Shown in pieces: positions 4,190-46,511 of a stretch of DNA of 54,194 bases. The stretch is taken from positions 1 through 54,194 of IMG/VR virus record IMGVR_UViG_3300005470_000003; one strand, given 5' to 3'. The DNA is from a virus. A program made the translations under genes and the position numbers. The number at the start of each line of letters is the position of its first letter. The first letter of the stretch is position 1. The notes beneath the pieces are model-generated. The model saw nothing but the letters and a program-made list of their open reading frames with translations, was not told the origin of the DNA and made no database searches.

Positions 4190-4210
4190 CTTTAATATGT
4201 TTGATAAACT

Positions 4211-4334
4211 ACAATAATGTGTTTCTAACAACATAATTATTATATATTTTTAACAAAAGGATTCTTTTCTGACGGTATAATCCATTTATATAATTATTTG
4301 GCACGTATTTTGCATAATTATTTTGTAAATATAA
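4211..4334 (+). promoter_or_regulatory. sigma-54 promoter in 124-bp repeat, copy 2
   Basis: TGGCAC at 4299-4304, spacer GTATT and TTGCA at 4310-4314. The flanks match copies 1 and 3, with scattered substitutions in the part between the upstream element and the -24 box. It should drive the gene at 4405 and those after it. Confidence 0.72.
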
Positions 4335-4404
4335 ATCCAAAAGACTGAGGAATTTAACACCTCATTAAATTGTTAATATATAAAAATTATCGAGGTTATT
4401 TATC

Positions 4405-8992: not shown

Positions 8993-9102
8993 AGCAGGGG
9001 AGCGGGGTGGGGAATCTCGCCTGTCGGTGCAAAAATTATTATATATTTTTAACAGATGGGTGAATTTAAATTTTGTTTTATAAATAATGTGGTAGATTAA
9101 CC

Positions 9103-9226
9103 ACAATAATGTGTTTCCTACAATATAATCATTATATATATCTTATCAAAAAACCTTTTTCCAACGGTATCATCCAACTATATAATTATTTGGCACATAT
9201 TTTGCATAATTATTTTGTAAATGTAA
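9103..9226 (+). promoter_or_regulatory. sigma-54 promoter in 124-bp repeat, copy 3
   Basis: TGGCAC at 9191-9196, spacer of 5 and TTGCA at 9202-9206. The surrounding 124 bp match copies 1 and 2. Together with 9010-9102, in which I see nothing else, this fills the gap before the gene at 9253. Confidence 0.75.
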
Positions 9227-9252
9227 CCTAAAAATGTGTTAAGGGAGAAATT

Positions 9253-18576: not shown

Positions 18577-18624
18577 ATTGAAGGTATTTTTTTCCTACAA
18601 TTTTTGCGGGCCGATTCCCTCCCT
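18577..18624 (+). repeat. 48-bp repeat, copy 1
   Basis: Matches 32595-32642 with one base different. It holds an A/T-rich left part and GCGGGCCGATTCCCTCCCT on the right. The second copy begins 6 bp after the stop of the first IscB gene, so this may be a solo right end of a lost IscB-type element, or an unrelated regulatory sequence. Confidence 0.8.
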
Positions 18625-28987: not shown

Positions 28988-29275
28988 ATGAGAACAACAA
29001 ATTGGATGAACCGTTTGCAGGGTTTGAACGAATCTTATTATCGTCAGGATAGTGAAGTCGATGAAAAATCTATAAATATAATTGATGAATCAGTTAAATC
29101 AATTGATATAATTAAAGAATTGATAGATACTTCTTGGGGCGGGGATAATGAATCGCAAGGGAAAGCAGTTCAATTGTTAAAAGGCTTAGCCTTTTCTGAT
29201 GAGGAGTCATCAAATAAATTTATGTCAGCTCTTGATAAATTTACGTCTGAACTGAATGCCGACGATTTTGTTTAG
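28988..29275 (+). CDS. small acidic protein, possible tag variant (95 aa)
   Basis: ATG 28988 after AATGGAG. The beginning MRTTNWMNRLQGLNES is not a classic tag but ends with the L-x-E seen in the tags. The rest is helical and acidic. Its stop codon TAG forms part of the GTCGATAACCCC repeat. Confidence 0.5.
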   Translation: MRTTNWMNRLQGLNESYYRQDSEVDEKSINIIDESVKSIDIIKELIDTSWGGDNESQGKAVQLLKGLAFSDEESSNKFMSALDKFTSELNADDFV

Positions 29276-31071: not shown

Positions 31072-31152
31072 ATGACAAGAGCGAATGAAATCTTGAATAA
31101 AATCGATTTTAATCACGTCGATAACCCCATACCCAAGGGTAGGAATTTTTAA
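31072..31152 (+). CDS. tag-only micro-ORF (26 aa)
   Basis: Starts with the tag MTRANEILNKIDF, then reads into the GTCGATAACCCC repeat, ending NHVDNPIPKGRNF. Probably the 5' end of a tagged gene whose remainder was replaced by the repeat and the IscB element next to it. Confidence 0.4.
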   Translation: MTRANEILNKIDFNHVDNPIPKGRNF

Positions 31153-31170
31153 TAATTCTAGTTATCGACC
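31117..31170 (+). repeat. GTCGATAACCCC repeat, copy B, with inverted end
   Basis: GTCGATAACCCCATACC at 31117-31133 continues with CAAGGGTAGG. About 35 bases on, GTTATCGAC (31161-31169) is the reverse complement of its first nine bases, so this copy can form a hairpin. It lies at the left of the first IscB RNA. An inverted copy (C) is at 34440-34456. Confidence 0.75.
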
Positions 31171-31204
31171 AGATTAAGAAAGTTATTTTTTTTTAACTTT
31201 CTAC

Positions 31205-31370
31205 GTGTATTTAGTTATGATACCTACAAATGCGTGCCAGTTTGTAGCCCTATCGTTAAGCATCATGAAAACATGGTTGGGGACATGGTGAAGGTGTTTA
31301 GCATGACAAGCTTTATACACATTATCGAGGCAAACATTACAGCCGAAAGGCTAGAAGGAGTTTTAAAACC
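31205..31370 (+). ncRNA. HEARO/omega-RNA-like RNA of IscB 1
   Basis: The 165 bp before the IscB frame contain a 7-bp stem CTACAAA/TTTGTAG (31224-31230 with 31241-31247), a GC-containing core (ATGGTTGGGGACATGG) and a final hairpin AGCC-GAAA-GGCT (31341-31352) 18 bases from the start codon. Position and ending match the RNAs known upstream of IscB (HEARO RNA, omega RNA). The guide would be the ~16-20 bases at the 5' end. Exact ends cannot be set by eye. Confidence 0.7.
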
Positions 31371-31445
31371 ATGAACAATCATGTGTTTGTGTTGGATACA
31401 AATAAAAAGTCATAATATCCATTTACAATTATTTTAAAAATTGCT

Positions 31446-32588
31446 ATGCCAGAAGCTGTAGTAAAAGCATTAATTACTAAAATTGATCCAGGTAGTAAAT
31501 ATACCGGTATAGTACTTGTAGATAATAATGATCGTGTATTGTTTGCTGCTGAAATAGAGCATAGAGGATTATTCATTAAAAATAAATTGGATAGCCGTAG
31601 AGTTCTTAGAAGGGGTAGAAGAGGTAGAAATACCAGATATAGACAACCAAGGTTTTTAAATAGGACAAGACCTGATGGTTGGCTACCTCCAAGTTTACAA
31701 CATAGACTTCTAACAACTATGACATGGATAGATAAGTTTAGAAGGTATGCTGAAATCTCAAAGTTAGCTGTAGAACGTGTAAAATTTGATATGCAAAAAA
31801 TGCAAAATCCAGGAATTTCTGGTGTTGAATATCAACAAGGAACCTTAGCCGGTTATGAAATGCGTGAATATTTGCTTGAAAAATGGAATCGTACATGCGC
31901 ATATTGTGGTAAACAAGATATTCCATTAGAGATAGAACATATTCATCCAAAATCGAAAGGAGGTTCTAACAGAATTAGTAATTTGACATTGGCATGCCGT
32001 TCATGTAATGAGAAAAAAGGTAATATGTTAATTGAAGAATTCCTTAAAAATAAACCTGATGTTTTGAAGATAATTTTAGCACAAGCAAAGGCACCGTTGA
32101 AAGATGCCGCTGCTGTAAATGCTACTAGAAATATGTTATTTAAAAAATTATTGAATACTGGATTATTAGTGGAAACTGGTACAGGTGCACAGACAAAATT
32201 TAATCGCATTGGGTTAAAATTACCGAAAGAACATTGGATTGATGCAGCATGTGTTGGAGATTCTGGATGTAATGTTAAGGTTGATTCAAATTTAAAGCCA
32301 TTGAAGATTAAAGCAACTGGACACGGAAATAGAAGGATGTGTAGTACTAATAAATACGGATTTCCTATTCAACATAGGACAAATAAAAAGTTTCATTTCG
32401 GTTTTCAAACAGGAGATATAGTCAAAGCTGTAGTAACAAAAGGAAAAAATATAGGGATACATATTGGCAAGGTTATGTGTCGTGCCAAAGGTAATTTTGA
32501 TGTTCAAACATTAAAAGGTAAAATAGGTGCTTCTTATAAAAATTGTAGTATTTTGAGTAGAAAGGATGGGTATATCTATAACACCTAA
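31446..32588 (+). CDS. iscB: IscB RNA-guided nuclease, PLMP domain disrupted (380 aa)
   Basis: RuvC-I is KIDPGSKYTG (D14), a basic bridge helix RRVLRRGRRGRNTRYRQ follows, RuvC-II has LAVERVKFD (E110), and the HNH domain lies between CAYC (151-154) and CRSC, with H165. RuvC-III is HWIDAAC (H263, D266). All catalytic residues are present. The normal start would be ATG 31371 (MNNHVFVLDTNKKS), but TAA at 31413 stops it. The PLMP segment of about 25 residues is deleted, and the same frame resumes with YPFTII. ATG 31446 has no ribosome site, so expression is doubtful. Confidence 0.85.
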   Translation: MPEAVVKALITKIDPGSKYTGIVLVDNNDRVLFAAEIEHRGLFIKNKLDSRRVLRRGRRGRNTRYRQPRFLNRTRPDGWLPPSLQHRLLTTMTWIDKFRRYAEISKLAVERVKFDMQKMQNPGISGVEYQQGTLAGYEMREYLLEKWNRTCAYCGKQDIPLEIEHIHPKSKGGSNRISNLTLACRSCNEKKGNMLIEEFLKNKPDVLKIILAQAKAPLKDAAAVNATRNMLFKKLLNTGLLVETGTGAQTKFNRIGLKLPKEHWIDAACVGDSGCNVKVDSNLKPLKIKATGHGNRRMCSTNKYGFPIQHRTNKKFHFGFQTGDIVKAVVTKGKNIGIHIGKVMCRAKGNFDVQTLKGKIGASYKNCSILSRKDGYIYNT

Positions 32589-32594
32589 TTAGAG

Positions 32595-32642
32595 ATTGAA
32601 GGTATTTTTTTCCTATAATTTTTGCGGGCCGATTCCCTCCCT
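32595..32642 (+). repeat. 48-bp repeat, copy 2
   Basis: Differs from 18577-18624 at one base (CCTATAA for CCTACAA). Its place 6 bp after the IscB stop suggests the right end of the IscB element. Confidence 0.8.
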
Positions 32643-39465: not shown

Positions 39466-39801
39466 GTGTACGAATATAAGGCAAGAGTGGTTAGAATTGT
39501 TGATGCTGACACATTTGATGTTTTAGTTGATCTTGGATTTGATTTAAGTTTTAAGATTAGAATTAGAATAAATGATTATGATGCTCCCGAAATTTGGCGT
39601 CCAAGAAATCAATCTGAAGCAGAGCATGGAGATAAAGCTACAGCACAGGCAAATAAACTTGTTTGGCAAAAAGATATAACTATTAGGACTTATAAATTAG
39701 GGATTTATGGTAGATACACTGCCGATGTGATACTACCAGATGGAAGAAGTTATTCTACTTTAATGAAGGAGCTTGGATTTGAAAAATCTGAGAATTATTA
39801 A
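39466..39801 (+). CDS. Snase-like (thermonuclease) protein (111 aa)
   Basis: VVRIVDADTFDVLVDLGF and FKIRIRINDYDAPE carry the Asp, Arg and Glu of the staphylococcal-nuclease site, and GRYTADVILPDGRS the second Arg. This fold cuts DNA or RNA with Ca. Start is GTG 39466 with weak GGAAAA upstream. No signal peptide, so intracellular. The stop overlaps the start of the next tagged gene by one base. Confidence 0.8.
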   Translation: MYEYKARVVRIVDADTFDVLVDLGFDLSFKIRIRINDYDAPEIWRPRNQSEAEHGDKATAQANKLVWQKDITIRTYKLGIYGRYTADVILPDGRSYSTLMKELGFEKSENY

Positions 39802-40067
39802 TGAAAGCTATTGATATATTACAGATGTTCGAAAAGAAATTTGAAATTGGTGAAGGAACTGTTGTAATTATTAATCCAAAAATTTCTGGATCTGATGGTG
39901 GTGTTGGTATAGTTAAAGATCCTAGAGATGGGAAATTTATGATTGTGAAAAATTTTAAAACTATGAAAACTCATTCTTTTGCTGGTTCTGATATTAGGCA
40001 TTTAGATGATCCAAGGGCAGATGAGTGGATCACACCGGAAATAGAGAAGATTTTGAACAAGATGTAA
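39801..40067 (+). CDS. tagged protein (88 aa)
   Basis: ATG 39801 shares its A with the previous TAA. The tag MKAIDILQMFEKK precedes a small beta-rich, KOW-like strand pattern (GEGTVVIINPKISGSDGGVG). The C-terminus (WITPEIEKILNKM) has a remnant duplicate at 40179. Confidence 0.6.
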   Translation: MKAIDILQMFEKKFEIGEGTVVIINPKISGSDGGVGIVKDPRDGKFMIVKNFKTMKTHSFAGSDIRHLDDPRADEWITPEIEKILNKM

Positions 40068-40084: not shown

Positions 40085-40165
40085 TTTTTATGATGGCAGT
40101 CATGAAACCCTGTCCATGGTCAATGGTTGAATTGACTCACACACTACTTATGTGCATGGGTGATG
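40085..40165 (+). ncRNA. structured RNA family, copy 1 (partial)
   Basis: Shares TCATGAAA-x-CCTGTCCATG and CACACACTACTTATG with copy 2. The hairpin GTCAAT-GGTTGA-ATTGAC (40119-40136) has a perfect stem whose sequence differs from the other copies while the loop is kept. The 3' half, with the closing GTAGTGT and U-tract, is missing. Confidence 0.6.
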
Positions 40166-40178
40166 TATCCATTTTTTT

Positions 40179-40232
40179 GATTATTCAAAGGCCGGTGAGC
40201 AAATCACACCCGATGTAGAGAATATTCTATAG
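40179..40232 (+). pseudogene. C-terminal remnant of a duplicate of 39801
   Basis: Reads DYSKAGEQITPDVENIL then stop, against ADEWITPEIEKIL in the gene at 39801. It replaces the 3' part of the structured RNA copy before it. Confidence 0.5.
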
Positions 40233-40241
40233 GGCAATGTA

Positions 40242-40670
40242 ATGGAAATTAAACAAAAATTAATTCATGAAAAATCATTGAGTTCGAAAAATTCTAGTGA
40301 ATCCAGAGTTCTTAAAATGTTAGCTATGCAATCACTTAAGATACCATCCAACATCAATGATAAAATTATAAAATGGACTGGTGAACGTAATAAGAATTGT
40401 TATATGTTATCAGGACGTTTTGGACTCGATAATGATGATTGGGAAGTTTGTCACGGAATTATAAATCCACCGATAGGACCATATAGTAATACTGATTATG
40501 ATCATGCTTGGTGTGAAAAAAGTAATGTGGTGTATGAATCTGTTTTTAATAAATTTTTTGAAAAGAAAGATTATTATGATGTATACATTCCAATGGATGT
40601 TAAACGTTACAAAGGTAATTCGTTAAGACGTATAATTTTAAAGAATGAAACATGGGGTCCATGGAAATGA
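40242..40670 (+). CDS. protein with Cys-His hydrolase-like pattern (142 aa)
   Basis: A possible Cys-His active site: NCYMLSGRFG near the centre and DHAWCEKSNVVYES after it, which recalls small phage and bacterial proteins with a C...HAW...D arrangement (transglutaminase-like). Not enough for a firm call. The start is ATG 40242 with GGGCAATG upstream. Not tagged at the N-terminus. Confidence 0.5.
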   Translation: MEIKQKLIHEKSLSSKNSSESRVLKMLAMQSLKIPSNINDKIIKWTGERNKNCYMLSGRFGLDNDDWEVCHGIINPPIGPYSNTDYDHAWCEKSNVVYESVFNKFFEKKDYYDVYIPMDVKRYKGNSLRRIILKNETWGPWK

Positions 40671-40807
40671 AGGATAGATTTAAGGAAAAATCAAAGAAGC
40701 ATATTAAGGTTGATTCTGGTACATTGAATAGTATTATGGAAAGTACAAAAAGTAAAGCTAGTAAATTAATTACAATTCTAGAGTCTGTTGTTAAGAAAAC
40801 AAATTAA
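40667..40807 (+). CDS. small protein with internal tag-like segment (46 aa)
   Basis: Overlaps the previous stop by ATGA. The second half reads KSKASKLITILESVV, which matches the tag pattern but begins at residue 28. An internal ATG (residue 24) could give a nearly standard tag. Confidence 0.45.
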   Translation: MKDRFKEKSKKHIKVDSGTLNSIMESTKSKASKLITILESVVKKTN

Positions 40808-40859
40808 ATAATATCATCTTTGGTGGGTTCTGTATTTAGGGCTGATCTCCACCATGGGC

Positions 40860-41010
40860 GCTGCTGCGTTTTTCGGTTTTTGTGGCAGCAAATCATGAAA
40901 TCCTGTCCATGACTCAATGTTTGAATTGGGCCACACACTACTTATGCGCAGGATAGTATACCTCCTTTCTTTGACTGCAAAATAGAGTTGGGTAGTGTCT
41001 CTTTTTTTAT
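40860..41010 (+). ncRNA. structured RNA family, copy 2 (full)
   Basis: Three stems: GCTGC/GCAGC (40860-40864 with 40885-40889), CTCAAT-GTTTGA-ATTGGG (40913-40930) and a long-range ACACTAC/GTAGTGT (40935-40941 with 40992-40998) followed by CTCTTTTTTTA. The last looks like an intrinsic terminator. Inside the long loop, 40960-40970 reads ACCTCCTTTCT, identical to an anti-Shine-Dalgarno sequence. It lies directly before the tagged membrane gene at 41034. Confidence 0.65.
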
Positions 41011-41033
41011 TATCAAATAATGGTGAATATAAT

Positions 41034-41627
41034 ATGACTAAGGCTACTGATATTATTGATTTATATGTGGGGCTTGAATTAGATGAAGCCTTTTATCGAG
41101 GTTTACAAATACTTGAATCTTATGATTTAACAGATCAATGTGAGACTGCAAATCAAGAGAAGACAGATGAAGCGTTTGGGGTGGTAGCAATACTCGGGCT
41201 AGTTATGGCTATGCCTAGTTTTGTTAAGTTGGTTGCCAAGGCGTTTGGTTGGATTTATAAAAAGATTGTTAAGTTATTTACGAAAAAAGATATAGATTCA
41301 CCTGAATTCATAGATAAGATTATTATTTTTGCAGAAAAATGGCATGATAAATACATTATTGTCCTTGAAAAGATTTTGAAAATAGCTGGTGTGTTTAAGG
41401 CAGCTAAATTAGAAGATCATGAGAAACAAAAGATGGCTGCTGAGGTCTTATTTTATATAATTGTGTTCGGTATGGCTGTCTATAGTGGTGTTGGAGCCAC
41501 TAAAGCAATAATTACTGCCATTCAGAATAGTAGTGCAGCACACAGTAAGATCGCGGTCATAGAAAGTGTATTAACTGGATTGAAATCCAAGGAGGTAAAG
41601 ACATTTATACAAAACATAAGTGCTTAA
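41034..41627 (+). CDS. tagged membrane protein (197 aa)
   Basis: ATG 41034 after ATGGTGA gives the tag MTKATDIIDLYVGLELDEAF. Two hydrophobic helices follow: GVVAILGLVMAMPSFVKLV (about 53-72) and EVLFYIIVFGMAVYSGVG (about 137-155), with a basic region between. A packaged membrane-active protein might take part in DNA entry; that is inference. Confidence 0.65.
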   Translation: MTKATDIIDLYVGLELDEAFYRGLQILESYDLTDQCETANQEKTDEAFGVVAILGLVMAMPSFVKLVAKAFGWIYKKIVKLFTKKDIDSPEFIDKIIIFAEKWHDKYIIVLEKILKIAGVFKAAKLEDHEKQKMAAEVLFYIIVFGMAVYSGVGATKAIITAIQNSSAAHSKIAVIESVLTGLKSKEVKTFIQNISA

Positions 41628-41815
41628 GTTGTAACTGTTAATATCTATAATTATTATTTTGTTTTTATAAACTATATTAATCGTTTAAATAATATGAATT
41701 ATGTCTTTAATACCTTTTATGTAAAAAGTAATTTTATTATCAGCTACTGTAGGAACTATATTAGTTCATTGTAAGGGTAGATAATTCTAGACGATAAATA
41801 TTCATTGGATTGATC
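41628..41815. other. intergenic region without clear feature
   Basis: About 190 bp of A/T-rich DNA between two tagged genes. A stretch near 41695 resembles the leader at 14058 (TGAATT-x-TGTC...CTTTT). I see no gene, terminator or promoter I could defend. Confidence 0.4.
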
Positions 41816-42703
41816 ATGTTGATAAAAGCAAATGACATAATTTCACTATTCGAATCAAAAGAATTGATGTATCACGGAACATCATCCAAGTTTTTAGATA
41901 GTATCATAAAGAACGGTCTTTTATTTAAAGAGGATGGAAGGGTTTGGGGTACTAAACAGGTTTCAACTCATTTGAATGATCTTGAATCTTATCATGGAAC
42001 TTATTTTACACTGAATTTTATGACTGCATATAGTGCATCTGGTCAAGCACATCGTAAATTTGGTGGAAATCGTTTAATTATAATTGCCAATATTGAGACC
42101 AGGACCCCGCAAGTAGTTGCAGATGAAGATGATGTCAAGAATAAAATTACCATTTTTTCAAAAGATTATAAAATTTACCCTGAAAGCGATACACTTAAAG
42201 TTGACATATTGAAATATGATAGTCTTGATTATGAAAGAAGTTGGGAAGAATTTAAATCAAGTGTAACTTATGGTAGATTGGGTTTTCCAAAGAAGTTGGA
42301 TTTATTATTTCCATTATATAAAGACTTATTGCTTGCTAAATTGTTATGGGAATTGTCATTTCATGATGTTGAAAAAGTTACTGGAATAAGTTACGATTTA
42401 AAACAGCTGCATAAAAAATATGATTTTAAAAATGCAAGGAGTAACTTTAGGAGTTTGTTTGATAAATTTTTGAAAAAGTTAAATTTTTTAGCAAGCCCGC
42501 CTCCTACTGGTCGTTTCATGCATTCAGTGAGGATGACAGATCCTGTTGGTTTCAAAGGGAAAAACAGAATTGTATATATTGTTGAAAATACTGACGATAA
42601 AAAATACATATGGACTGAAAGATATAATAAAAGTGGTGTTGCAAAGGAAATGTTTTTGAAAAATATAAAAACAAGTTTGTCTAAAAACGCTACAATTATC
42701 TAA
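41816..42703 (+). CDS. tagged ADP-ribosyltransferase-like protein (295 aa)
   Basis: The tag MLIKANDIISLFESK is followed at once by ELMYHGTSSKFLDSIIKNGL, the His-Gly-Thr-Ser NAD-binding strand of the HYE/PARP-type ART fold. YHGTYFTLNFMTAYSAS is the second (Tyr) motif and NRLIIIANIETRTPQVVADED the third-strand region. T4 Alt is a head-packaged ART injected to modify host RNA polymerase, which this may parallel. The target is unknown. Confidence 0.75.
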   Translation: MLIKANDIISLFESKELMYHGTSSKFLDSIIKNGLLFKEDGRVWGTKQVSTHLNDLESYHGTYFTLNFMTAYSASGQAHRKFGGNRLIIIANIETRTPQVVADEDDVKNKITIFSKDYKIYPESDTLKVDILKYDSLDYERSWEEFKSSVTYGRLGFPKKLDLLFPLYKDLLLAKLLWELSFHDVEKVTGISYDLKQLHKKYDFKNARSNFRSLFDKFLKKLNFLASPPPTGRFMHSVRMTDPVGFKGKNRIVYIVENTDDKKYIWTERYNKSGVAKEMFLKNIKTSLSKNATII

Positions 42704-42727
42704 TTTTGTTTATTTTTTTGGTGTAAT

Positions 42728-43405
42728 ATGACTATTGCAAGAGATATTTTAAGAATCATAGAAGATAGATGGGGTACCAATTTTTCAGGTGACGACACTG
42801 GAAATTGGGAATCAAAATTAATATTATCAAACGATTGGACAATGACTTGTGGACTTTCATTAAAAAATGATAGGAAAAATTATTCAGTTGAAGGTGCAAC
42901 AGAGGATCATCCTGGTTTTAGAAAAGCTCTTGATGAAATTGTTAAAAAATATCCATATATAAAAGATTATCTTATATCTTTTGATGGGCCATATATTAAA
43001 ATATCTGATGTATTAAAGCGTAAGAAATTTTCTTGGAAAGATATTACACTGTATCATGGAACGGCCTCAGCCTTTTTGGATTCTATAAAAAAGAATGGGT
43101 TGAGTCCAAGGTCTGTTACTAATCAAAATGCCGGGTATGGTTCATTTGTTGGGGCTAAAAGTGGTAATAAAGATGCCATATATCTCACAACACAAATTGG
43201 AATGGCTAAATTTGCTGGTTTAGAAGTTTCAAGTAAAACAAATTCAGATAGGATAATATTATCGGTAAATGGAAAAGATCTCAATCCAAAGCTTTTGATT
43301 CCAGATGAAGATAGTAGAAAACAAACACCAGAAGATAGTTTATTTAAAATTGGATCGGTTGGGTATCTAGGGATTATTCCGTTTAGTCAGTTGTCAAGGT
43401 CTTAA
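42728..43405 (+). CDS. tagged ADP-ribosyltransferase-like protein (225 aa)
   Basis: The tag MTIARDILRIIEDRW comes first, then about 85 residues without assignment, then ITLYHGTASAFLDSIKKNGLSPR, YGSFVGAKSGNKDAIYLTT and RIILSVNGKDLNP: the H, Y and strand-3 segments of an ART/Tpt1-like fold. The end (SVGYLGIIPFSQL) is typical of the last strand. A fragment of the same 5' end recurs at 45053. Confidence 0.72.
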   Translation: MTIARDILRIIEDRWGTNFSGDDTGNWESKLILSNDWTMTCGLSLKNDRKNYSVEGATEDHPGFRKALDEIVKKYPYIKDYLISFDGPYIKISDVLKRKKFSWKDITLYHGTASAFLDSIKKNGLSPRSVTNQNAGYGSFVGAKSGNKDAIYLTTQIGMAKFAGLEVSSKTNSDRIILSVNGKDLNPKLLIPDEDSRKQTPEDSLFKIGSVGYLGIIPFSQLSRS

Positions 43406-43409
43406 TACC

Positions 43410-43622
43410 TTGGTTTGTTAGGTGACTAACAACGATTAAAAGAGCTGATTAGTCTAAGTCTTAATTGACTACGTTATCTTAGAATATATAGGTACTTCAG
43501 AATGCCTCCCAAGTTCTGAACACTACGGATGATAGTTAAACAGAGTTCAAAGACTCGGTGCTATTATTAAAAACCTAAGAATAACATTGACGATGGGAAT
43601 CAACTCCGAAAGGAGATTTATA
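43410..43622 (+). ncRNA. HEARO/omega-RNA-like RNA of IscB 2
   Basis: The 210 bp before the IscB start hold a GTTAG-GTGA-CTAAC hairpin (43417-43430), a core with CCTCCCAAGTTCTGAAC ... AGAGTTCAAAGACTCGG pairing, and the final hairpin CTCC-GAAA-GGAG (43604-43615) 7 bases before ATG 43623. The final stem differs in sequence from that of the first IscB RNA (AGCC/GGCT) while the GAAA loop is kept. The hairpin overlaps the ribosome site. Confidence 0.75.
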
Positions 43623-44813
43623 ATGAATCCAAAAGTATTTGTTTTGGCAGAAGATGGGACACCATTGATGCCTACAACTGCATCAAGGGCTAGACGAAAA
43701 TTGAGGGATGGTCAAGCTAAAGTTGTGAAAAGAGAACCTTTCACAATTCAATTGCTTTACAAATCAGGAATGGAGATTCAACCAATTAAGTTGGGGATTG
43801 ATTCGGGCTATCAAAATATAGGTTTTTCCGCAACAACAGAAAAAGATGAATTAATATCCGGTGAAGTTAAGTTGGATAATGGAATGTCAAAGAGAATCCA
43901 AGACAAAGCCATATATCGTAGGAATCGCAGGAATAGACTTAGATACAGACAATCAAGATTTGATAATAGAACACAAAAAGAAAATTGGTTGCCACCATCA
44001 ATTCAAAGAAGATTTGATACTAATATTAGTCTTATTAACAAATTGAGATCAATACTTCCTATTTCTGAGATTATTGTTGAGGCAGGTAGTTTTGATATTC
44101 AAAAGTTACAAAATCCTGAAATTGAAAGTAAACAATATCAACAAGGTGAAATGTATGGTTATGCAAATCTAAAATCTTATCTTTTGACAAGAGAAAAAAG
44201 TTTATGTCAATTGTGTGGTAAAGTTCACAAAAAGTGGCAGATGCATCATATTATTCCAAGGTCTAAAGGTGGAACAAATAGACCAAAGAATTTTGCATTG
44301 TTGGGCGATAAATGTCATGATAAATTGCATAAACAAAATTTATATCACAAATTAAAAAAGAATAGACAATTTAAAGGATCTACTTTCATGTCTATCATTA
44401 GAAAGAGATTCTATGATTTCGGATATAACGTAGTTTATGGTTATCAGACCTTTGTGGATCGCAATAAATTGAGTTTATCTAAGAGTCATGCAAATGATGC
44501 CTTTGTAATATCAGGTGGTATAAATCAAAATAGAGTAAATATGTTCATAGTAACTCAAAAAAGAAAAAATAATAGATGTCTGCAAATTAATAGAAAGTCG
44601 GGAATTTTGATTCGTAGAAAGAGATATAGTATTCGACCAAAAGATTTAGTTAAATATTCAGGTAAGATGTTTGAAGTGATAGGGATTATTAGTAGGGGAT
44701 TAAGTGTTGGTCTGACGGATGGAATTAAAAAGATTTATAAATCACCATCAAAATTGGATGATTGGATCTTTCATAGAAAGACATTGATTTGGAGAAACTG
44801 TATAGGTCAATAA
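43623..44813 (+). CDS. iscB: IscB RNA-guided nuclease, intact (396 aa)
   Basis: An ancestor-type relative of Cas9. The PLMP domain is present (residues 1-50, with T-PLMP-T at 13-18). RuvC-I is KLGIDSG (D60), the bridge helix YRRNRRNRLRYRQSRF, RuvC-II IIVEAGSFD (E153), the HNH domain runs from CQLC (195-198) through MHHIIPRSKGG (H208-H209), and RuvC-III is SHANDA (H289, D292). All catalytic residues are kept. I start at ATG 43623 (not 43587) because the RNA hairpin and GGAG lie just upstream. No TnpA transposase is beside it. Confidence 0.92.
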   Translation: MNPKVFVLAEDGTPLMPTTASRARRKLRDGQAKVVKREPFTIQLLYKSGMEIQPIKLGIDSGYQNIGFSATTEKDELISGEVKLDNGMSKRIQDKAIYRRNRRNRLRYRQSRFDNRTQKENWLPPSIQRRFDTNISLINKLRSILPISEIIVEAGSFDIQKLQNPEIESKQYQQGEMYGYANLKSYLLTREKSLCQLCGKVHKKWQMHHIIPRSKGGTNRPKNFALLGDKCHDKLHKQNLYHKLKKNRQFKGSTFMSIIRKRFYDFGYNVVYGYQTFVDRNKLSLSKSHANDAFVISGGINQNRVNMFIVTQKRKNNRCLQINRKSGILIRRKRYSIRPKDLVKYSGKMFEVIGIISRGLSVGLTDGIKKIYKSPSKLDDWIFHRKTLIWRNCIGQ

Positions 44814-44815
44814 TA

Positions 44816-45013
44816 ATGATAGGTGAGAAGGCAACTATTTGTTTATGTCCAAAATGTAATTGTAAACACAAATATAAGATTTATTGGGTTGGCAACGGCA
44901 TTCCTCGTGTCTATTGTAAAATTTGTAGGGCAATAATTTCAAGAAGAATATTTATGGAATCATATAAAGTCAGCAACGGTTCAAATTCATCACAACGTTT
45001 AGTCGATACCTAA
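44816..45013 (+). CDS. zinc-ribbon protein next to IscB 2 (65 aa)
   Basis: Starts 2 bp after the IscB stop. CLCPKCNC and YCKIC give two metal knuckles separated by a basic WVGNGIPR loop. The tight spacing suggests it is expressed with IscB. Its last codons lie in a shortened GTCGAT repeat. Confidence 0.6.
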   Translation: MIGEKATICLCPKCNCKHKYKIYWVGNGIPRVYCKICRAIISRRIFMESYKVSNGSNSSQRLVDT

Positions 45014-45038
45014 TGGTATGAATTTTTAATAATTTAGA
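45002..45038 (+). repeat. GTCGAT repeat, copy E (shortened)
   Basis: Reads GTCGAT-ACCTAATGGTATG then AATTTTTAATAATT. It lacks the AACCCCAT of the other copies but shares the AATTTTTAATAATT tail with copy B, which lies beside the first IscB RNA. Copies near both IscB genes hint at a link. Confidence 0.55.
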
Positions 45039-45052
45039 ATTGGTGCCATAAT

Positions 45053-45100
45053 ATGACTATTGCAAGAGACATTTTTAAAAATTATAGAAGATGGAGGTAA
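45053..45100 (+). pseudogene. 5' fragment of the 42728 gene
   Basis: MTIARDIFKNYRRWR, then stop. At the DNA level it matches the first ~45 bases of the tagged gene at 42728 with a one-base shift. A leftover of tag duplication. Confidence 0.55.
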
Positions 45101-45105
45101 TTATT

Positions 45106-46028
45106 ATGAGTAAGGCTAGTATGATATTGGAAATTCTTGAACCAAAAGATCCTAGTAAAATTTCTTATTCTCTAATCTTGATGAAAAGTCAGAATTGATT
45201 TTGAAGACTTTTTATCATAAAAATCCTGAAAAATATAAGTTTAATCTTTTTCATATATATGATCTCGATTTAAGAGAATCTTTAGCAAAAATTGTTGGAT
45301 TGGATATTGACTGGGATTATGATCAACATGAAGTTAATAAATCTCTTACTTTTTTTGCTAATAAATTTTATGAATTTTCAGAATCTAATGAATATTTAAT
45401 CAGCAGGGGGGTTACTGAAGATCAAATTAATAGATTTAAGTTAGGCAATGTTTCGGGATTTTTCAATCATTTGGAAAAAAATGTTGATCTTTATGATTTT
45501 AATGAAGTCTCAAAAAGTTTAATGAGATTTTATATATGTTCCATGCAAGAAGTATCCAGCCTCTATGGTCCTACTGAAATGGTTACTATTCCAAATTTTA
45601 ATGTTGATTGTTTAGGAATAGTAGGTAGAGTTGTTGGTTATACTGATAAATATAAGATAGATAGGAACATTCATAAATTTTCGAATACCAATCAACTGAC
45701 TTATCTTTTAGGGGAAGATGTTCTTGATGATTATGATTGGGTTTATCTTGTAGAAGGGGTATTTGATCTTCTTGCTATGGATAGAATTGGAATAAAGAAT
45801 GTAGTTACAGCTTCTGCAACATCACTTTCTAATATGCATGTGAAAAAATTAATGGGAAAAGGGGTAATTGCTATATTTGATAATGATTTAGGCGGATACC
45901 ATGGAATTGAAAGATTAAAAAATCAGGATATTGATTTAATTGATGGTGTTCAAATTGATTTTGCTAAAGATATAGACGAGGCTGATCCAAATCAATTATA
46001 TAATTGGGTTACAAGCATGTTTCTTTAA
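45106..46028 (+). pseudogene. tagged TOPRIM (DnaG-like) gene, frameshifted
   Basis: From ATG 45106 (TGGAGGT upstream) the frame gives the tag MSKASMILEILEPKDPSK and ends at 45196-45198. The frame one base earlier is open from 45159 and runs to 46028: a domain with VYLVEGVFDLLAMDRIG (TOPRIM Glu), VVTASATSLS and VIAIFDNDLGGYHG (TOPRIM Asp-x-Asp), as in DnaG-type primases. A single-base change near 45160-45173 would join them. If not frameshifted, translation would need a TTG start at 45195. Confidence 0.65.
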
Positions 46029-46156
46029 GGCACTATAATAATTAGTAAATAATGTTAATTGTTTGTGTGTTCTAGTGTGTAGTTTCGAAAGCAAAATAGC
46101 ACCAGGTTCAAATTTATTTCAACGTTTAGATAATAATTGATATTTTTTAAGTTTAT

Positions 46157-46300
46157 CTCATCATTGCCTTTTTCGCATTTTAGGCAATGAGTAATTATGT
46201 CTATCCAAGTCTGATGTTTGAATCAGAACAAACACTACTATTGCATAGAGTACTACCTCCTTTGTTGGGATTATTGAGGGTTGGGTAGTGTCCCTCTTTT
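46157..46300 (+). ncRNA. structured RNA family, copy 3 (full)
   Basis: Stems: CATTGCC/GGCAATG (46162-46168 with 46183-46189), TCTGAT-GTTTGA-ATCAGA (46210-46227) and ACACTAC/GTAGTGT (46232-46238 with 46285-46291), followed by CCCTCTTTTTA. ACCTCCTTT recurs at 46255-46263. The stems differ from copy 2 in sequence but keep pairing. It fills most of the 318-bp gap 46029-46346; I see nothing else in that gap apart from a TTCAAATT...CAACGTTTAG stretch like the one at 44980. Confidence 0.65.
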
Positions 46301-46346
46301 TATATGTTGTAATTTTTACTAAAATTTATTAATGGTGATCATAATT

Positions 46347-46511
46347 ATGAATGTATTGATATGGCTTCTTGATTTTTTTGGTATTTTTAAAACTGTAAAT
46401 GTAAAGAACGATATAGATAAATATGCTGCTGCCTATGTTATATTTTTAGTCTCAGTCATATTTCTCGGGTCTCTGATTGTTTTATCATTTGTTAAACACT
46501 TTTTTAATTAG
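46347..46511 (+). CDS. small membrane protein (54 aa)
   Basis: ATG 46347 after ATGGTGAT. Two hydrophobic stretches (residues 2-14 and 29-49), the second a clear transmembrane helix. It directly follows structured RNA copy 3. Confidence 0.5.
   Translation: MNVLIWLLDFFGIFKTVNVKNDIDKYAAAYVIFLVSVIFLGSLIVLSFVKHFFN

What the first reader, a model, noticed from the sequence alone, without database searches (positions are those of the whole stretch)
40085..46300. Unnamed structured RNA family, three copies, with an anti-Shine-Dalgarno-like core
Seen: the second hairpin is GTCAAT-GGTTGA-ATTGAC, CTCAAT-GTTTGA-ATTGGG and TCTGAT-GTTTGA-ATCAGA in the three copies: changed stems, kept pairing, kept loop. 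The first hairpin also covaries (GCTGC/GCAGC against CATTGCC/GGCAATG). Both full copies have long-range ACACTAC/GTAGTGT then a U-run, and ACCTCCTTT, the sequence of the 16S rRNA 3' tail. Inference: a regulatory leader with terminator, or an RNA that competes with or mimics the anti-SD. It precedes membrane-protein genes at 41034 and 46347.
Basis: partly seen in the sequence, partly recalled or inferred. Interest (0 to 1): 0.82.

Follow-up and report, generated by a model that had tools for sequence, protein, structure and literature searches.

The report
New phage RNA family, Shine-Dalgarno-complementary seed
A large uncultured bacteriophage carries two intact copies and one broken copy of a previously undescribed ~145-base structured RNA whose stems change sequence but keep pairing, and which holds a copy of the ribosome's mRNA-recognition tail, so it may be a small RNA that regulates translation.

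Summary
Copies B (40860-41008) and C (46161-46301) are full-length; copy A (about 40095-40174) is a relic cut at its 3' end by a 52-nt fragment of a neighbouring gene. A covariance model built from B alone finds C (E 7e-15) and A (E 3e-9) and nothing else in the window. Sixteen of 30 helix positions show changes on both sides with pairing kept; by the pair-counting tool, 14 of 29, exceeding all 500 shuffles. G-U pairs put the RNA on the + strand. The structure is larger than reported: P1, a P2/P2b helix enclosing P3, a 3' hairpin P4 before the U-run, and a possible 8-bp pseudoknot ACACUACU/GGGUAGUGU. UACCUCCUUU, conserved and outside every covarying helix, matches the 16S 3' tail over 9 nt.

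No Rfam family matches. No homologue was found by pattern in IMG/VR or GTDB, by BLAST in phage or plasmid records, or by covariance model in about 100 virus records. The family is so far confined to this contig.

Best reading: a trans-acting phage sRNA with an anti-Shine-Dalgarno seed, exposed when the pseudoknot forms (about 0.42). Main rival: a cis attenuator leader (about 0.33). Existence of the RNA is near certain; function is untested.

The parts
40860..41008 (+). Copy B, full-length RNA (P1 to end of U-run)
40860..40889 (+). B: P1 hairpin, 9 bp, 12-nt U-rich loop
   Evidence: 7 of 9 pairs compensatory against copy C
40900..40954 (+). B: P2 (40900-40906/40948-40954) and P2b (40908-40910/40944-40946) enclosing P3
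   Evidence: 3 + 1 compensatory pairs among A, B, C; C.C or C.U mismatch kept between P2 and P2b
40913..40930 (+). B: P3 hairpin, 6 bp, loop GUUUGA
   Evidence: 4 of 6 pairs compensatory among three copies
40935..40942 (+). B: ACACUACU, 5' strand of proposed pseudoknot, on the 3' side of the internal loop
   Evidence: invariant in A, B, C; complementary to 40991-40998
40959..40968 (+). B: UACCUCCUUU anti-Shine-Dalgarno-like seed
   Evidence: 11-nt match to a 16S 3' tail in B, 9 nt in C
40984..41002 (+). B: P4 3' hairpin AGAG/CUCU, loop UUGGGUAGUGU, directly before the U-run (41002-41008)
   Evidence: one compensatory pair against C; weak alone, -1.6 kcal/mol
40991..40998 (+). B: GGUAGUGU (within GGGUAGUGU), 3' strand of proposed pseudoknot
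46161..46301 (+). Copy C, full-length RNA
   Evidence: R1 match 76.3 bits, E 7.4e-15
46161..46190 (+). C: P1 hairpin, 9 bp, 12-nt U-rich loop
46200..46249 (+). C: P2 (46200-46204/46245-46249) and P2b (46206-46208/46241-46243)
46210..46227 (+). C: P3 hairpin, loop GUUUGA
46232..46239 (+). C: ACACUACU, 5' strand of proposed pseudoknot
46254..46263 (+). C: UACCUCCUUU anti-Shine-Dalgarno-like seed
46276..46301 (+). C: P4 hairpin GAGGG/CCCUC (46276-46280/46292-46296), loop UUGGGUAGUGU holding the 3' pseudoknot strand (46284-46291), then the U-run 46297-46301
   Evidence: -7.3 kcal/mol alone
40095..40174 (+). Copy A, relic: P2, P2b, P3 and ACACUACU kept; 5' strand of P1, seed and P4 lost
   Evidence: R1 match 50 bits, E 3.4e-9; pairs
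40175..40226 (+). Fragment homologous to the 3' end of gene 39801-40067, truncating copy A
   Evidence: 52-nt ungapped alignment, score 39 against a maximum of 27 in 500 shuffles; reads GEQITPDVENIL against DEWITPEIEKIL
41034..41627 (+). ORF downstream of copy B, 197 aa, N-terminal MTKATDIIDLY tag, hydrophobic stretches by eye
   Evidence: no family
46347..46508 (+). ORF downstream of copy C, 53 aa, hydrophobic by eye, no N-terminal tag
   Evidence: no family

Best explanation
A phage-encoded non-coding RNA family of about 145 nt, present here as two intact paralogues and one relic. Shown: conserved secondary structure on the + strand (P1; P2/P2b enclosing P3; 3' hairpin P4 then U-run) and a conserved UACCUCCUUU outside the covarying helices. 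Inferred: each copy ends at its own intrinsic terminator and acts in trans as a small RNA. ACACUACU in the P2-P3 internal loop pairs with the P4 loop (GGGUAGUGU); this pseudoknot stabilises the 3' end and frees UACCUCCUUU, which base-pairs with Shine-Dalgarno sequences (AAAGGAGG-like) of target mRNAs, of host or phage, and blocks translation initiation. When the pseudoknot is open, GGGUAGUGU pairs locally with the seed and masks it.
For: Compensatory changes in every helix, and G-U pairs that would be A.C mismatches on the other strand. UACCUCCUUU with following UU and G is kept between B and C while flanking spacers diverge, and matches the 16S tail by 9 nt (0.5% of random 147-nt window pieces contain such a match). 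Holding the pseudoknot strands out of other pairing frees the seed in B (unpaired probability 0.69-0.98) from burial of most of its bases; in C the release is partial. The pseudoknot helix is worth -10.4 to -10.9 kcal/mol, and its bulge/loop complementarity has p 0.008-0.04 by letter shuffling. The genes downstream of B and C are not convincingly related (E 0.003 over 31 residues), as expected if the RNA itself is the product. Known sRNAs show the same pattern of conserved unpaired anti-SD with variable stems: alpha-r14/NfeR1 (PMC10746234) and csRNAs (PMC3091779). Phage phiKZ makes a ~100-nt intergenic ncRNA ending in a possible terminator hairpin (PMC8545117).
Against: No transcript data, no promoter conserved upstream of P1, and no validated target. 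Both pseudoknot strands are invariant, so it has no covariation support. Plain folding buries most of the seed. Both intact copies lie shortly upstream of an ORF, as a leader would. The anti-SD match is short and was noticed after the fact. No homologue outside this contig.
Confidence: 0.42

Rival explanations
1. Cis-acting attenuator leader: the P1/P2/P3 domain senses a ligand, protein or transcription speed and sets whether the pseudoknot plus P4 (terminator) or the alternative local hairpin forms, controlling read-through into the gene just downstream.
For: The U-run ends 25 nt (B) and 45 nt (C) before the next start codon. Two mutually exclusive pairings for GGGUAGUGU. Copy A is followed by the tail of a paralogue of gene 39801, as if the RNA had preceded such a gene before a deletion. 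No conserved promoter upstream.
Against: Both alternative folds end next to the U-run, so neither is clearly an antiterminator. The longer local hairpin of C is not kept in B beyond UACCU/GGGUA (folds). Downstream genes are not convincingly related. In a tightly packed co-directional phage genome any intergenic RNA sits in front of a gene. Does not explain the identity of the seed with the 16S tail; the downstream start regions carry GGUGA, not AAAGGAGG.
Confidence: 0.33
2. Protein- or ribosome-binding decoy: the RNA mimics the 3' end of 16S rRNA to titrate a factor that recognises that end (ribosomal protein, rRNA-processing or translation factor) rather than to pair with mRNAs.
For: 9-11 nt identity with the 16S 3' tail; compact folded RNA with an independent 3' end.
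Against: Similarity is limited to the linear tail; no Rfam SSU rRNA match even at E up to 5, so helix 45 is not mimicked.
Confidence: 0.1
3. An ordinary bulky terminator or intergenic element spread by segmental duplication, with no regulatory role.
For: Copy A is a decayed relic; paralogous repeats are common in this genome.
Against: A plain terminator does not need P1-P3 kept by compensatory changes, nor a conserved 10-nt block outside helices.
Confidence: 0.1

Closest known systems
alpha-r14 / 'cuckoo' sRNAs (NfeR1 of Sinorhizobium meliloti)
   Same: Anti-SD motif conserved in unpaired regions while stems differ strongly in sequence (PMC10746234).
   Different: Three hairpins each carrying CCUCCUCCC; chromosomal in alpha-proteobacteria. 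Here there is one ACCUCCUUU between helices, a possible pseudoknot, and a phage genome; no Rfam match.
csRNAs (CiaR-controlled sRNAs of streptococci)
   Same: Several paralogous copies per genome; unpaired region between stem-loops complementary to the Shine-Dalgarno sequence; 3' terminator (PMC3091779).
   Different: Defined by CiaR promoters and usually an anti-AUG next to the anti-SD; no long P2/P3 arm or pseudoknot described in the passages read.
phiKZ intergenic ncRNA (between PHIKZ298 and PHIKZ297)
   Same: ~100-nt intergenic RNA of a giant phage, two stem-loops, the second a possible terminator (PMC8545117).
   Different: No sequence or anti-SD similarity tested or reported in the passages read; unrelated phage.
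c4 antisense RNA of phages P1/P7
   Same: Phage RNA that blocks translation by pairing around a ribosome binding site (review PMC12197685).
   Different: Targets ant mRNA by specific complementarity; no generic anti-SD seed described in the passage read.
Riboswitch or attenuator leaders
   Same: Covarying sensor-like domain followed by terminator and start codon.
   Different: No Rfam riboswitch matches; no demonstrated ligand.

Membership tests
Any Rfam 15 family | Covariance model score above gathering threshold | tested here: not met
   Only HEARO x2 and tRNA-Leu in the window; permissive scans of the copies gave only sub-threshold chance hits
Structured RNA with evolutionary support | Compensatory base changes in helices | tested here: met
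   14 of 29 pairs, 0 of 500 shuffles as high; 16 of 30 by direct pairing
Anti-SD sRNA (alpha-r14 / csRNA-like) | Conserved anti-SD motif outside conserved helices | tested here: met
   UACCUCCUUU in B and C; exposed in B only when the pseudoknot is assumed, partly in C
Anti-SD sRNA (alpha-r14 / csRNA-like) | Independent transcript with its own promoter and terminator | tested here: inconclusive
   U-run after P4 present, P4 weak in B; promoter-like sites no more frequent than in shuffles
alpha-r14 / cuckoo | CCUCCUCCC in three hairpin loops | tested here: not met
   Sequence of B and C
csRNA | CiaR-controlled promoter and anti-AUG near the anti-SD | not tested
   Host unknown; no Rfam match
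Riboswitch / attenuator | Ligand-dependent switch controlling the downstream gene | not testable with these tools
   Competing pairings exist, function unknown
Intrinsic terminator | GC-rich hairpin directly before a U-run | tested here: inconclusive
   C: 5 bp GAGGG/CCCUC, -7.3 kcal/mol; B: 4 bp, -1.6 kcal/mol; P4 of neither copy is listed by the consensus scan, whose loop limit is 8 nt

The most novel reading that the evidence does not exclude
A pseudoknot-gated phage regulatory RNA: pairing between an internal loop and the loop of its 3' hairpin switches a 16S-tail mimic between hidden and exposed states, letting the phage dampen translation of strong-Shine-Dalgarno (host) mRNAs at a chosen stage, with several paralogues per genome.
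Probability: 0.15. Interest if true: 0.8.

Novelty: new variant of a known kind. Interest (0 to 1): 0.55.

Why it matters
Few structured RNAs of virulent phages have a known function. This one has unusually clear covariation from only three sequences, an explicit secondary structure, a testable seed and a testable switch. If it acts through the Shine-Dalgarno complement, it would be a direct RNA route by which a phage reshapes translation.

Tried and rejected
GTDB pattern scan: six unrelated hits. BLAST in phage and plasmid records: only weak partial matches. Covariance models R1 and R2 over about 100 virus records, mostly with a related terminase: nothing convincing; the best outside matches (E 0.2-0.6 in Vibrio phage 1.031.O) lack the core motif and have many unpaired helix positions. 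Protein-guided searches with the 41034 product and the window's terminase alone: nothing.

Leader-peptide attenuation rejected: the short ORFs after the conserved AUG differ (MKSCP in B, MSIQV in C, read). Minus-strand RNA rejected: six or more G-U pairs would be mismatches. The longer local hairpin of C as the conserved structure rejected: the next three outward pairs are mismatched in B (read from the folds). Copy A as a functional third member rejected: it has lost the seed, P4 and the P1 5' strand. Mimicry of 16S helix 45 is not supported by the Rfam scans.

Full report
What is there. The window is a 54,194-base IMG/VR virus record. Its terminase is 43% identical to that of Rhizobium phage RHph_TM30 and 59% to that of a 20-kb metagenomic contig; the genes around the finding are on the + strand. 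The finding covers three related intergenic stretches. A covariance model made from copy B alone (R1) scores copy C at 76.3 bits (E 7.4e-15) and copy A at 50 bits (E 3.4e-9); the next match in the window has E 0.69. So this record holds exactly three detectable copies.

Structure. Direct pairing without fitting gives these helices. P1: 9 bp with a 12-nt U-rich loop in B and C, 7 of 9 positions compensatory. P2: 3 compensatory positions, followed by a kept C.C or C.U mismatch. P2b: CAU/AUG in A and B, CAA/UUG in C. P3: 6 bp with loop GUUUGA or GGUUGA, 4 compensatory positions. P4: AGAG/CUCU against GAGGG/CCCUC, 1 compensatory position, directly before the U-run. In all, 16 of 30 positions are compensatory. 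On the structure-fitted alignment A11 the counting tool gives 14 of 29, with 0 of 500 shuffles as high, and pairing falls from 98.6% to 25-45% when partners are slid. A11 leans towards the B structure and the sequences are paralogues, but the hand pairing needs no gaps in P1, P2b or P3. G-U pairs in P1, P2, P3 and the pseudoknot set the RNA on the + strand. Free energy alone is uninformative.

Conserved single-stranded parts. ACACUACU is invariant in all three copies, and GGGUAGUGU in B and C; they can form 8 pairs joining the P2-P3 internal loop to the P4 loop. Being invariant, they give no covariation. Bulge/loop complementarity has p 0.008 (B) and 0.04 (C) by letter shuffling, and the helix is worth -10.4 to -10.9 kcal/mol. 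UACCUCCUUU, followed by a kept UU and G, is conserved while the flanking spacers differ. It matches the 16S tail by 11 nt in B and 9 nt in C; 0.5% of random 147-nt pieces of the window contain a 9-nt match.

Two states. In unconstrained folding the seed is mostly paired with the 3' G-rich segment. With the pseudoknot strands held out, it becomes free in B (unpaired 0.69-0.98) and partly free in C. GGGUAGUGU thus has two possible partners. P4 is weak alone in B (-1.6 kcal/mol) and moderate in C (-7.3), so the pseudoknot may be needed for a stable 3' end.

Copy A. Its 3' half is replaced from 40175 by a 52-nt fragment of the end of gene 39801-40067 (score 39 against at most 27 in 500 shuffles). 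A deletion between duplicated units would leave this. It is a relic, not a third functional member.

Surroundings. B precedes ORF 41034 (197 aa, tagged N-terminus) and C precedes ORF 46347 (53 aa); neither has a family, and their similarity is marginal. The start regions after both copies carry GGUGA rather than a strong purine Shine-Dalgarno. Across 110 predicted genes GGUG is found upstream of 23 and GGAGG of 8. Perfect 9-nt complements of the seed on the + strand occur only inside coding sequences (31956, 41589), so no clear cis target is seen.

Relatives. None found (details and call numbers in the tried-and-rejected field). The window's own record appears to be excluded from the collection scans, since its own copies did not come back, so the negative results concern other records. 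Most scans used exact patterns and would miss diverged members.

Interpretation. The seed, its position outside helices and the variable stems are the pattern of anti-SD sRNAs such as alpha-r14/NfeR1 (PMC10746234) and csRNAs (PMC3091779). A phage ncRNA with a possible terminator hairpin is known in phiKZ (PMC8545117). I therefore rate a trans-acting anti-SD sRNA first (0.42) and a cis attenuator second (0.33). This is a functional analogy, not membership. The existence of a structured RNA family I hold at about 0.97.

Noticed in passing
601-747, 4196-4342, 9088-9234: Three 147-nt intergenic repeats (84-90% identical), each ending in TTGGCAC(A/G)TATTTTGCAT, which fits the sigma-54 -24/-12 promoter consensus; phage genes may be under sigma-54 control.
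   Followed up: partly
about 20 ORFs, e.g. 21913, 22317, 23796, 36738, 39801, 41034, 42728, 47090: Many otherwise unrelated small proteins share an N-terminal motif like M-x-x-A-x-x-I-I-x-L-x-E, reminiscent of a capsid-targeting tag of injected internal proteins; several look like ADP-ribosyltransferases by eye (sub-threshold PARP match for 41816).
   Followed up: partly
31117-32588 and 43386-44813: Two HEARO RNA plus RRXRR/HNH (IsrB-type) elements; HEARO 5'-end-like pieces (GTCGATAACCCCATACC..) also stand alone near 29275 and 49940, and a related one near 45000.
   Followed up: partly
18577-18624 and 32595-32642: 48-nt repeat, 98% identical; the second copy directly follows the stop of the first IsrB-type gene, so it may mark an element end or a former insertion site.
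   Followed up: no
44979-45006 and 46106-46133: Repeated GGTTCAAATT.AT...CAACGTTTAG, resembling a tRNA T-arm, the second about 30 nt upstream of copy C.
   Followed up: no
45105-46028: A tagged N-terminus (MSKASMILEIL) is separated by a frame break from a Toprim/DNA-primase-like ORF; possibly a broken or frameshifted cargo primase.
   Followed up: no
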